A stretch of DNA of 64,000 bases from Brenneria bubanii (GTDB lineage: Bacteria; Pseudomonadota; Gammaproteobacteria; Enterobacterales; Enterobacteriaceae), in NCBI RefSeq assembly GCF_022378355.1, contig NZ_JAKMAJ010000006.1, forward strand, positions 1-64,000, written 5' to 3'. The position numbers and the translations under genes are program-made. Shown one piece after another: positions 43,321-56,969 of the stretch; the stretch's first letter is position 1, and each line of letters opens with the position of its first letter. The notes below the pieces were generated by a model. The model was not told where the DNA came from. It worked only from the letters and a program-made list of their open reading frames with translations, and did not search any database.

Positions 43321-43345
43321 TTTTGATCGTAAAGGACGATCAAAA
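43321..43345. promoter_or_regulatory. Perfect 10-bp inverted repeat upstream of acs
   Basis: TTTTGATCGT and ACGATCAAAA around AAAGG. It lies about 300 bp upstream of acs and 10 bp from a second dyad. Either a regulator site or a hairpin; no regulator can be named. Confidence 0.45.
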
Positions 43346-43354
43346 GATTGAGAA

Positions 43355-43373
43355 CAATAGATGTAATCTATTG
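43355..43373. promoter_or_regulatory. Perfect 8-bp inverted repeat upstream of acs
   Basis: CAATAGAT and ATCTATTG around GTA, centred about 30 bases from the centre of the preceding dyad, roughly three helical turns. It may be part of the same control region. Confidence 0.45.
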
Positions 43374-43437
43374 AAAACAATGGATTGATCGTTATATTCA
43401 TCACAGGGAAGGGAATAATTCTTCTAATTTTTTATAG

Positions 43438-54308: not shown

Positions 54309-54877
54309 ATTCACCTCTTTGATATTCAGGTTAATTAAAATACTTCCGGACTGAACCGCGACCATAACCATGCAACAATGCTTACGGTTAACTAACTCAA
54401 TACTGGTCTATCGGACAAATAATGGCAATACCGAATAGCAGCCAGGTTGGATATCAAAAAGATATGCTTGAAATCCATCGATACCCACACTGTAACTCAT
54501 GTTTTCTTAATCGGCTTTTAGCGCTTTTATTCAATATATAAGAACGGATAACCGCCACATCACATTCAGTATTTTATTTGCAAACGCGAATAAGAAATAA
54601 CTGAAAGTGCTAGCTGTGGCGGATGATTCAACTTGCAAAAAATTGAATGTTACCGAATATGAATACATACAAAAAGATATGTCTGAAACATCAAAAAAAC
54701 CTTAGATGAGTAACCAAGCGTATTCCTAGGCATCAACATACAAATTTTTCATTCAAAAATTTCGACTGTTTCACGAAAATCTTCTAGTAATTTTTTTCCA
54801 GATCGATCAAAGGATTGACCTATCAAACAGGTAGAATCGATCGACAAATAAATCATTTTTATAGGTTAATATTTTTA
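54309..54877. other. Gap upstream of the first YdiV-like gene
   Basis: About 570 AT-rich bases without a gene. Several GATCGATC-type motifs occur near 54801-54845, of the same kind as the dyad that follows at 54878, so the control region may extend over 100 bp. Confidence 0.4.
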
Positions 54878-54906
54878 TATTGATCAGTTTTATAGATCGA
54901 TCAATA
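54878..54906. promoter_or_regulatory. 29-bp dyad upstream of the first YdiV-like gene
   Basis: TATTGATC, 13 bases beginning AGTTTTA and ending GATC, then GATCAATA. The same arrangement with the same spacing recurs at 56207-56235 before the second gene; the two copies differ at only a few spacer bases. It ends 33 bases upstream of the ATG. Confidence 0.7.
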
Positions 54907-54939
54907 ATGCTCAAAACATAGCCACTCCAGGGAATCGTG

Positions 54940-55635
54940 ATGACCGTCGATTCAATCTCATGTGCCAATAGGCACTATGTTATAGAGCCTATTTATAGTT
55001 GTCAGAATCGGTTATTCGCGATGGAGCTGCTTACCCGATTTAATGATGAAGGGCCACGTTCGGAGAAACGAATTCAGCAAATGAGCCGCGCGGAGAAGCA
55101 GGCGCTGCTGGTAGATCAACTGGAATCCATCACCCAGAAGCAACGCTATTTCATTGAAAATGAAATACGTCTGTCGATAAACATCGACTTCACCATGGCG
55201 ATGTTTTTATCCCAGGATGGTGAGACCAGACGCTTATTGGATAATTTACCCTTTATTTGCCTGGAGATAGGCGAGAGTTTCCCTAATCTCAATGATGGGA
55301 AACGTAATCCGCTGCTTGCAACGCTGTATGAACGTTACCCACTTTGGCTAGATGGCTTTGGTAGCGGGGATGCCAATATATATGCGGTAAGCCAGTCGAC
55401 CTTTCACTATGTCAAGCTGGATAAGATATTCTACTGGGAAATGATAAAGGACAGGAAAGTCTATACATTATCCGTTCTAGTAGAAAACATAAAAAAATAC
55501 TGTCACGGCATCATTATAGAAGGAGTCCAAACCCACTCGGAATATTATCTTTTAAAAAACTGCGGCATAGAAGGCATTCAGGGATATATCTACCCAACCT
55601 ATACATTAGATACGCTACCGATATTAAAAAAATGA
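54940..55635 (+). CDS. YdiV/RflP-like degenerate EAL protein, copy 1
   Basis: 231 aa from the ATG at 54940 (AGGGA 6 bases upstream; a GTG directly precedes it). It is the length of YdiV and has a single degenerate EAL domain: AMELLTRF in place of EAL, LSINIDF, CLEIGESFPNLNDGKRNPLL, WLDGFGSGDANIYAVS, YVKLDKIFY, IIIEGVQ. The second Asp of the DDFG motif is Gly, so c-di-GMP hydrolysis is unlikely. The NLNDGKRNPLL..LYERYPLWL..FGSGDAN stretch is the YdiV/STM1697 signature; those proteins bind FlhD and turn off flagellar genes. It is translationally overlapped by a small membrane ORF and followed by a paralogue. Confidence 0.85.
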   Translation: MTVDSISCANRHYVIEPIYSCQNRLFAMELLTRFNDEGPRSEKRIQQMSRAEKQALLVDQLESITQKQRYFIENEIRLSINIDFTMAMFLSQDGETRRLLDNLPFICLEIGESFPNLNDGKRNPLLATLYERYPLWLDGFGSGDANIYAVSQSTFHYVKLDKIFYWEMIKDRKVYTLSVLVENIKKYCHGIIIEGVQTHSEYYLLKNCGIEGIQGYIYPTYTLDTLPILKK

Positions 55636-55757
55636 ACGAGATAATCATATTATTAGTGTTGGTTTTAATTGTTGCCTATGCATTCATAAAGCAATATATA
55701 AAAAGTGCGCAAAATAAGATAATTACAAAAAGGAAAGTAAAAAAATTAAAAAGGTAG
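55632..55757 (+). CDS. Small membrane protein overlapping the YdiV-like gene
   Basis: 41 codons starting with ATG at 55632, which overlaps the TGA of the preceding gene (ATGA), an arrangement typical of translational coupling. The product has one hydrophobic helix at residues 4-18 (IIILLVLVLIVAYAF) and then a strongly basic tail (ITKRKVKKLKR), the layout of small inner-membrane proteins with a cytosolic basic end. The frame stays open for 82 codons after the TAG, so the stop might be a secondary mutation. Confidence 0.5.
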   Translation: MNEIIILLVLVLIVAYAFIKQYIKSAQNKIITKRKVKKLKR

Positions 55758-56006
55758 ATACAGAATGAAAAGCAATACTATTACATCAATGGCTGGATAG
55801 AAGCACAGTACGATACAAACGCAGAAAAAAACAGCATCGTCTTCCCCCTAAATCATCCTGGATCTCGGCCCTGTGGAGCCTCAGTTCCTCTCTGGAAAAG
55901 CATTCATAATTTTTTCGTATGGAACCGATCGGCGCCAATAAAGATTAGCCAGCTAATTATTTATTCATACAAATATATTAGCAAGATAACCATAAAAGTG
56001 TCGTAG
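55758..56006 (+). other. Open frame continuing after the small ORF
   Basis: In the same frame as the small membrane ORF, 82 codons follow its TAG without another stop (KQYYYINGWIEAQYDTNAEK, then SIVFPLNHPGSRP). The composition is protein-like. It could be the rest of a formerly longer gene, or chance. No start codon with a Shine-Dalgarno is present. The remainder up to 56206 shows nothing. Confidence 0.3.
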
Positions 56007-56206
56007 CAAATCACCCGACATGACAGTATAATGGCAAAGATTCCAATTCGTTTATTATATATTGATAAATAATCTTTTCTGGCTTATGGCTAATGCGATT
56101 TTCCCGCTCAAAATTCACTGTTATTTCAAGTTCATTCCACGGCAATACCTATCAAAAAAACTTAATCGATCGGTAAATTAATAATTTAGAGCAATTAAAA
56201 CTGATA

Positions 56207-56235
56207 TATTGATCAGTTTTACTGATCGATCAATA
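56207..56235. promoter_or_regulatory. 29-bp dyad upstream of the second YdiV-like gene
   Basis: TATTGATC-N13-GATCAATA, the second copy of the dyad described at 54878. It ends 29 bases upstream of the chosen ATG. Confidence 0.7.
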
Positions 56236-56264
56236 ATATGTTATTAACTCTAAACCTGGAAACT

Positions 56265-56969
56265 ATGCCAATGGTAGATTCAATACTAGATATAGATGAT
56301 AGGAGGCACTATGTTGCCAAGCCTGTCTATAATTTCCAGCAAGAGATGTTCGCCGTAGAGCTACTGGCAAGGTATAAAAATAGAGGGCTAAGCTCGACCA
56401 AACACCCCCTACAGTTGAGCCAATCAGAAAAATACGATGTACTGATAGATCAGTTGGAATGTATTTCGGCAAAACAGTCATATTTCATTGATAACAATGT
56501 CTTAGTGACGATAAACATCGATTTTGTGATGGCGGTATTCATATTGCAGAATAAATACGCCGGTGACTTACTGCAGAGCCTGCCGTTCATCCATCTGAAA
56601 ATAAACGAGATATTCCCAAATCTCAATGATGGGAAACGGAATCCCCTGCTTGCAAAACTCTATGAACGCTACCCGCTGTGGCTCGATGATATGGGTAAAG
56701 GCGACGCCAATCTCTACGCCGTTAGCCAATCTGTTTTTAGTTATATTAAGCTGGATAAGCATTTCTATTACGACATGATCAAATGCAAAGAAGATTATGT
56801 CTTATTATCATTAATCAACAATATAAAGAAATTTTGCAACGGGGTTATCGTTGAAGGCGTACAGGATCACTCAGAACACGAGTATTTAAAACGCTGCGGG
56901 ATACATGGCATGCAAGGGCAGCTTTATCCAACATATCGGCTCGATAACTTACCCGCATTATCTGAATAG
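56265..56969 (+). CDS. YdiV/RflP-like degenerate EAL protein, copy 2
   Basis: 234 aa from the ATG at 56265 (GGAA upstream). An in-frame ATG at 56238 is only 3 bases from the dyad and lacks a Shine-Dalgarno, so it is rejected. Same fold as copy 1 with AVELLARY, VTINIDF, HLKINEIFPNLNDGKRNPLL, WLDDMGKGDANLYAVS, YIKLDKHFY and VIVEGVQ. Here the DD motif is intact, but the metal-binding Glu of the third motif is Lys (LKINE), so it too should be inactive as a phosphodiesterase. The two copies look like an old tandem duplication. Confidence 0.85.
   Translation: MPMVDSILDIDDRRHYVAKPVYNFQQEMFAVELLARYKNRGLSSTKHPLQLSQSEKYDVLIDQLECISAKQSYFIDNNVLVTINIDFVMAVFILQNKYAGDLLQSLPFIHLKINEIFPNLNDGKRNPLLAKLYERYPLWLDDMGKGDANLYAVSQSVFSYIKLDKHFYYDMIKCKEDYVLLSLINNIKKFCNGVIVEGVQDHSEHEYLKRCGIHGMQGQLYPTYRLDNLPALSE

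What the first reader, a model, noticed from the sequence alone, without database searches (positions are those of the whole stretch)
54878..56235. Identical 29-bp dyad before both YdiV-like genes
TATTGATC-N13-GATCAATA at 54878 and 56207, with the same spacer length and nearly the same spacer, although the coding regions have diverged greatly. Strong conservation suggests binding by one regulator. Other GATCGATC motifs cluster near 54801-54845 and similar TGATCGT elements appear upstream of acs.
Basis: seen in the sequence. Interest (0 to 1): 0.72.

Follow-up and report, generated by a model that had tools for sequence, protein, structure and literature searches.

The report
Methylation-sensitive switch before two EAL genes
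The repeated DNA motif looks like a docking site for the protein OxyR that is sensitive to DNA methylation, the type of on/off memory switch that E. coli uses for a surface protein, here placed in front of genes that probably restrain swimming.

Summary
In detail: TATTGATC-N13-GATCAATA occurs exactly at 54878-54906 and 56207-56235 (27 of 29 bases shared) and nowhere else exactly in the genome. The arms are kept in all 13 promoters of these EAL genes found in 9 Brenneria genomes and in 2 of 2 of a second genus; related arrays precede homologues in further enterobacterial genera. The core is a GATC-N9-GATC box with upstream CTATCAAA half-sites. OxyR sites printed for the phase-variable gtr operon have this form, and a near match lies in the E. 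coli flu (agn43) promoter, where OxyR and Dam methylation compete. A published Yersinia methylome reports three unmethylated GATCs before an EAL gene with the same 17/18-bp spacing as the homologous promoters fetched here. The proteins resemble STM1697 and YdiV, inhibitors of FlhD4C2. Best reading: an OxyR/Dam epigenetic switch on EAL-type motility or c-di-GMP regulators. OxyR binding, Dam dependence and bistability are inferred, not shown, and an OxyR matrix is not clearly significant for the two window promoters alone. A new member of a known kind with a testable, unusual target.

The parts
54878..54906 (+). dyad copy A, TATTGATC-N13-GATCAATA; holds GATC-N9-GATC (54882-54898) and a third GATC (54899)
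56207..56235 (+). dyad copy B; holds GATC-N9-GATC (56211-56227) and a third GATC (56228)
54820..54845 (+). upstream element A: CTATCAAA and GATC at 54839, conserved in 13 of 13 Brenneria promoters; candidate second OxyR position
   Evidence: role inferred
56149..56173 (+). upstream element B: CTATCAAA and GATC at 56168
   Evidence: role inferred
54801..54808 (+). GATCGATC pair upstream of copy A only
54880..54908 (+). putative promoter A, TTGATC-N17-AATAAT, overlapping the dyad
   Evidence: 9 of 12 matches; such pairs are no commoner in the region than in shuffles
56209..56237 (+). putative promoter B, TTGATC-N17-AATAAT, overlapping the dyad
   Evidence: same caution
54940..55635 (+). EAL gene A (STM1697/YdiV-like); lacks one of eight catalytic residues (second Asp of DDFG is Gly)
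56265..56969 (+). EAL gene B (58% identical to A); lacks another catalytic residue (Glu to Lys); start codon uncertain (56238, 56265 or 56271)
43325..43402 (+). possible further OxyR-like array upstream of acs: box starts 43326, 43357, 43388, 31 bp apart; 43357 is the best matrix score in the window
   Evidence: conservation not tested

Best explanation
Each of the two tandem EAL genes has its own copy of an OxyR/Dam epigenetic switch of the agn43/gtr/opvAB kind. OxyR, a LysR-type protein, is inferred to bind the GATC-N9-GATC box at the promoter and the CTATCAAA/GATCG half-sites upstream, and Dam methylation of the GATCs inside these sites is inferred to block it. Because the box overlaps the putative -35 and -10, OxyR on unmethylated DNA most likely keeps the gene OFF and methylated DNA lets it be ON; the upstream element could be an alternative OxyR position. 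A cell and its descendants would keep one state for generations. The products are STM1697/YdiV-like EAL proteins that probably restrain FlhD4C2 or alter c-di-GMP, so the switch would split a clone into more and less motile cells. Shown here: sequence, conservation, form of the box, presence of OxyR and Dam, protein family. Inferred: OxyR binding, Dam sensitivity, direction, bistability, effect on motility.
For: Arms kept in 13 of 13 Brenneria and 2 of 2 g58 promoters. A scan of 391 genomes for the 19-base form gave 16 sites, 13 directly before EAL-type genes in 5 genera, control 1. A related consensus hits 88 of 371 genomes and 52 of 142 genera with no control match seen in any row. Of nine E. 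coli K-12 stretches scanned, the only place with 5 or fewer mismatches is the flu (agn43) promoter (1 mismatch), where OxyR binding to unmethylated GATCs represses (PMC12369378, PMC8286834, passages). OxyR sites printed for gtr are GATC-N9-GATC (PMC7708049 Table 2). The window boxes rank 15 and 16 of 63,986 positions with a matrix from seven known sites; 27 of 86 EAL upstreams reach p<=0.01. OxyR and Dam each in 20 of 20 genomes. Y. enterocolitica YE2225: GATCs at 38/55/73 bp unmethylated (PMC10742451); g41 EAL promoters have the same 17/18 spacing.
Against: Matrix p-values for the window promoters themselves are 0.05 (through another site) and 0.11. Both lie 3 mismatches from the stricter consensus, which does not list them. 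43 of 86 EAL upstreams exceed p 0.05, among them most E. coli plasmid EAL genes and the E. coli ydiV promoter has no array. The Brenneria upstream element fits the recalled 11-bp OxyR register only loosely. Promoter-like pairs in the region are not above chance. That g41 is Yersinia and its gene is YE2225 is inferred from spacing and family, not from a named sequence; the paper's fourth GATC is at 288 bp, in G328 at 255. No binding, methylation or expression data exist here for Brenneria.
Confidence: 0.7

Rival explanations
1. The same Dam-sensitive scheme, but the LysR-type binder is HdfR, as at the Salmonella std operon, rather than OxyR.
For: HdfR is present in 20 of 20 genomes; at std, methylation of two GATC sites prevents HdfR binding (PMC3264584, passages).
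Against: The form GATC-N9-GATC is printed for OxyR at gtr and the flu box is known as an OxyR site. The HdfR site sequence could not be compared: papers not held. The hdfR upstream shows no such box.
Confidence: 0.12
2. An ordinary operator of a LysR-type or other regulator; the GATCs are incidental and methylation does not matter.
For: LysR-type sites often have the form ATC-N9-GAT (recalled). YeiE, a LysR-type protein present in 20 of 20 genomes, represses STM1697 in Salmonella (PMC8262846, passages).
Against: GATC is kept at several positions, and in Yersinia three such GATCs are unmethylated. YeiE's own conserved intergenic dyad (TTATATATTTATAA, in 9 of 17 upstreams exactly and 1 more with one change) is different. 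LeuO is absent in 4 of 4 Brenneria tested.
Confidence: 0.11
3. No regulator: the upstream DNA is a recent duplicate of a promoter and the dyad is kept by the promoter alone.
For: The genes are tandem paralogues with alignable upstreams (76 of 97 aligned bases) and TTGATC-N17-AATAAT overlaps the dyad.
Against: The 29-mer is better kept (93%) than the 60 bp before it (72%), the leader (67%) or the coding DNA (69%), and the arms persist in other species and a second genus. The spacer between hexamers need not be kept for a promoter.
Confidence: 0.06

Closest known systems
agn43 (flu) OxyR/Dam switch of E. coli
   Same: K-12 flu promoter holds the consensus box with 1 mismatch and three GATCs, with 13-bp GATC steps as in the dyads
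   Different: Target is an autotransporter; second GATC step is 19 bp there, 43 bp (Brenneria) or 18 bp (other genera) here; regulation shown there, inferred here
gtr and opvAB OxyR/Dam phase-variation loci of Salmonella
   Same: Printed gtr sites are GATC-N9-GATC; two OxyR positions per promoter
   Different: Targets alter lipopolysaccharide; opvAB is activated by OxyR; Brenneria upstream element has one GATC plus a CTATCAAA half-site
YE2225 EAL-gene promoter of Y. enterocolitica (methylome paper PMC10742451)
   Same: EAL gene with three promoter GATCs 17 and 18 bp apart, unmethylated in vivo, like the g41 promoters fetched here
   Different: No binding protein was assigned to it in the parts read; identity with the g41 gene is inferred; Brenneria spacing is 13 and 4 (17 in all)
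STM1697 and YdiV (anti-FlhD4C2 EAL-like proteins)
   Same: Best solved relatives of the profile: 5hxg STM1697 E 8.8e-57, YdiV 1.3e-41
   Different: Several relatives keep all eight catalytic residues, so some may be active phosphodiesterases; Salmonella ydiV is bound by CadC and H-NS at another sequence (PMC9728131 passages)

Membership tests
OxyR/Dam phase-variation loci (agn43, gtr, opvAB) | Promoter box of the OxyR GATC-N9-GATC form with several GATCs | tested here: met
   12 of 13 Brenneria promoters keep GATC-N9-GATC
OxyR/Dam phase-variation loci (agn43, gtr, opvAB) | Match to an OxyR matrix beyond chance in the promoter | tested here: inconclusive
   family: 27 of 86 upstreams at p<=0.01; window promoters 0.05 and 0.11
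OxyR/Dam phase-variation loci (agn43, gtr, opvAB) | OxyR and Dam encoded in the genome | tested here: met
   20 of 20 genomes each, own genome included
OxyR/Dam phase-variation loci (agn43, gtr, opvAB) | OxyR binds the site, and binding and GATC methylation exclude each other | not testable with these tools
   only indirect: unmethylated GATCs at YE2225 in a published methylome
OxyR/Dam phase-variation loci (agn43, gtr, opvAB) | Heritable ON/OFF expression dependent on oxyR and dam | not testable with these tools
   no expression data here
STM1697/YdiV anti-FlhD4C2 EAL-like proteins | Sequence family with STM1697 or YdiV closer than catalytic EAL enzymes of known structure | tested here: met
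   STM1697 8.8e-57, YdiV 1.3e-41, next EAL enzyme 4.8e-11
STM1697/YdiV anti-FlhD4C2 EAL-like proteins | Loss of phosphodiesterase residues | tested here: inconclusive
   window A and B each lack one of eight; four relatives in the alignment lack none
STM1697/YdiV anti-FlhD4C2 EAL-like proteins | Binds FlhD and inhibits FlhD4C2 | not testable with these tools
   -
HdfR/Dam-controlled std-type promoters | HdfR-binding sequence with GATCs | not tested
   papers with the site were not held; hdfR present in 20 of 20 genomes

The most novel reading that the evidence does not exclude
Two tandem, separately heritable OxyR/Dam switches give Brenneria clones up to four epigenetic motility or c-di-GMP states, and the same type of switch is a widespread, repeatedly kept control of flagella-brake EAL genes across the enterobacteria, so that swimming heterogeneity in this group is in part written in Dam methylation.
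Probability: 0.35. Interest if true: 0.78.

Novelty: new member of a known kind. Interest (0 to 1): 0.62.

Why it matters
It offers a candidate explanation for published unmethylated GATCs before an EAL gene in Yersinia, links the known OxyR/Dam memory switch to control of motility or c-di-GMP, and makes a direct prediction: expression of these brake genes should be bistable and depend on oxyR and dam. The family-wide box (88 of 371 genomes) is also a probe for other methylation-sensitive switches, many of them on mobilisable islands.

Tried and rejected
LeuO was considered because E. coli leuO has TATTATTGATCAATTAATG upstream; dropped because no LeuO passes E<=1e-60 in 7 of 17 genomes, 4 of 4 Brenneria among them. 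YeiE was considered because it represses STM1697; disfavoured because its own conserved intergenic dyad differs. LrhA: in the E. coli lrhA stretch the only hit within 6 mismatches lies inside alaA. HdfR is kept as a rival. CadC and H-NS at Salmonella ydiV (PMC9728131 passages) concern another sequence. An FNR-type TTGAT-N4-ATCAA reading (recalled) does not fit the spacing. A simple 29-bp dimer dyad was rejected as the unit because N13 pairing is lost in G239 and G249 while GATC-N9-GATC stays. Conservation of the acs-upstream array could not be tested: acs was not in the 15-16.5-kb stretches taken from 6 other Brenneria. K-12 islands CP4-57 and CP4-6 hold no box within 5 mismatches. A search of E. 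coli genomes with the g24 EAL gene and promoter found no match.

Full report
OBSERVATION. They are the only exact copies in the 4.89-Mb genome; allowing 2 mismatches adds 2 places with unrelated spacers, and the read-backwards control gives 1.

ANATOMY. The dyads end 33 (A) and 29 (B) bp before the likely start codons of two tandem EAL genes (Pfam EAL; 58% identical). Each dyad contains GATC-N9-GATC followed directly by a third GATC and overlaps a TTGATC-N17-AATAAT promoter-like pair (such pairs are no commoner in the region than in shuffles: 8 against 7.3). CTATCAAA starts 60 bp before the dyad's TTGATC, and a further GATC stands 43 bp before the dyad's first GATC. Between copies the 29-mer is 93% identical, the 60 bp before it 72%, the leader 67%, the coding DNA 69%.

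CONSERVATION IN THE GENUS. Among 10 Brenneria genomes 9 have A- or B-type genes (56% identity or more); G114 has only EAL genes of about 30%. All 13 promoters of these genes carry the exact arms, the CTATYARA and GATCGR elements and CAATAAT; GATC-N9-GATC is in 12 of 13 (G298 has GGTC). The EAL paralogues of about 30% identity do not carry the array upstream; some have 2-mismatch matches of the 19-base form at the far end of the gene, in L063 and L065.

OTHER GENERA. The arms alone with 1 mismatch hit 59 of 295 genomes, mostly with unrelated spacers, against 7 control genomes; the 6 exact sites (5 genomes) all precede EAL genes. The 19-base form TTGATCNNTTTTANNNATNGATCAA with 1 mismatch gave 16 sites in 15 of 391 genomes, control 1: 13 sites precede an EAL-type gene in 5 genera (g1, g58, g41, g62, g66; the g66 gene is a 169-aa relative with no Pfam hit), 3 do not (G146, G325, G124). 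A profile found homologues in 132 of 391 genomes at E<=1e-38; I read 59 further upstreams, a part of those listed. They show related arrays: ATATATTGATCGTTTTTATTGATTGATT in G331 (g46), CATTGATCGATATTATTGATTGATT in G023 (g24), ATTGATCGTTATTATTGATCAATAAT in G239, and GGATTGATCGATAAAATATATTGATATACGATG in G170, G025, G254 and, with small changes, G032 and G016. By eye, the genes of G061, G023 and G331 lie between fabI and sapF, and those of G025, G340, G016 and G087 between an lplA-like gene and selO, near the ydiV place of E. coli. Many other upstreams have no array, for example the second EAL gene of g41 and five of seven plasmid genes; the E. coli ydiV promoter has none. GATC distances in 85 upstreams pile up at 4 (21), 13 (16), 17 (20), 18 (11) and 43 (17); the sequences are related, so this is descriptive.

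WHAT THE BOX IS. ATC-N9-GAT is a LysR-type form (recalled). The consensus WTYGATCGTTWTTAYMGATCRATA with 2 mismatches hits 88 of 371 genomes, 52 of 142 genera, at more than 100 places, and I saw no control match in any row. The window dyads themselves are 3 mismatches away and not in that list; a looser pattern finds them with 0 and 1. In E. coli K-12, in nine stretches scanned, the only place with 5 or fewer mismatches is in the flu (agn43) region, just before flu (1 mismatch). There loss of methylation leads to OxyR binding and repression (PMC12369378 and PMC8286834, passages). The OxyR sites printed for gtr, GATCGGTAACAACGATC and GATCGTTTATATCGATC, have the form of the box, and those for opvAB are related (PMC7708049, passages with Table 2). 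The upstream CCTATCAA agrees with the recalled OxyR consensus GATAGGT read on the other strand. A matrix from six printed sites and the agn43 box puts the window boxes at ranks 15 and 16 of 63,986. Against shuffles 27 of 86 EAL upstreams reach p<=0.01 and 43 reach 0.05, but the window promoters give 0.05 (through another site) and 0.11. The assignment therefore rests on form, conservation and relatives.

IN VIVO HINT. PMC10742451 (passages, and part 1 of the discussion) reports for Y. enterocolitica EAL gene YE2225 GATCs 38, 55 and 73 bp before the AUG unmethylated at 22 and 37 C, and one at 288 bp that goes from fully to hemimethylated. The g41 EAL promoters have GATC adenines at -39/-56/-74 (G328) and -40/-57/-75 (G040, G176): the same 17/18 steps; the next GATC of G328 is at -254. 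That g41 is Yersinia and the gene YE2225 is my inference. What I read mentions OxyR for phage Mu mom, not for YE2225.

REGULATOR. In 20 genomes that carry a box or array, OxyR and Dam are found in 20 each, HdfR in 20, YeiE in 20; LeuO in 10 of 17, in none of 4 Brenneria. The presence test excludes only LeuO. YeiE's own intergenic dyad differs. HdfR is also methylation-sensitive, at std (PMC3264584 passages), and stays a rival.

TARGET. Among solved structures the profile hits STM1697 first (5hxg, 8.8e-57), then YdiV (4es4, 3tlq), then catalytic EAL enzymes at 4.8e-11. STM1697 and YdiV inhibit FlhD4C2 (PMC8262846 passages). Window A and B each lack one of eight catalytic residues; L051, L034, L090 and L039 keep all. 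The output may be a flagellar brake, a phosphodiesterase, or either by species.

THIRD OWN-GENOME SITE. The looser pattern with 2 mismatches has 3 hits in the own genome and 1 control hit: the two dyads and G000:C4:290673, about 60 bp before a canonical EAL gene (Pfam 125.5 bits) divergent from a PilZ gene.

MECHANISM. OxyR on the unmethylated promoter box most likely blocks RNA polymerase (OFF) and methylation frees the gene (ON). The direction is the least certain step: opvAB is activated by OxyR and locked ON without Dam (PMC3350482, abstract and passages).

NOVELTY. The switch class is known. Its use before STM1697/YdiV-type EAL genes was not found in two searches: OxyR + Dam methylation + phase variation + EAL domain gave 1 paper, the Yersinia methylome; OxyR + GATC + phase variation + phosphodiesterase + flagell gave 4, of which PMC11868660 was not opened and the others were seen in passages. 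Most subscription papers are not in the library.

Noticed in passing
window 43325-43402: Upstream of acs: GATCGTAAAGGACGATC, ATAGATGTAATCTAT and GATCGTTATATTCATC with starts exactly 31 bp apart; the middle one is the best OxyR-matrix score of 63,986 window positions.
   Followed up: partly
L220/L283 (G000 contig 4, 290673): Third box of the own genome, between divergent EAL and PilZ genes.
   Followed up: partly
L278-L306: Of 29 loci read from the family-wide box search, 10 lie beside a MobA-type relaxase gene and 3 beside a GTPase gene, by tblastn: the box is common on mobilisable islands.
   Followed up: partly
L254 and E. coli genomes: The relaxase-side box region of L213 has matches in 334 of 5,426 E. 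coli genomes, all on chromosomes.
   Followed up: no
plasmid records; L257, L260: 429 of 72,556 plasmids carry a relative of EAL gene A, all under 60% identity; of 7 upstreams read, pPAT9B of Pantoea has a GATC-18-GATT-13-GATC array and a Klebsiella plasmid a weaker candidate.
   Followed up: partly
upstreams of G331, G045, G179, G023, G323: A TAAGAANATTCTTAAAA-like stretch, resembling an RcsAB box (motif recalled), precedes the array in these fabI/sapF-type EAL promoters.
   Followed up: no
L262-L277: yeiE-yeiH intergenic dyad around TTATATATTTATAA is kept exactly in 9 of 17 upstreams, Brenneria and E. coli among them: a likely YeiE site.
   Followed up: no
G297, G298, G296, G324: These genomes have a second, Dam-like methylase gene at 45-51% identity.
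   Followed up: no
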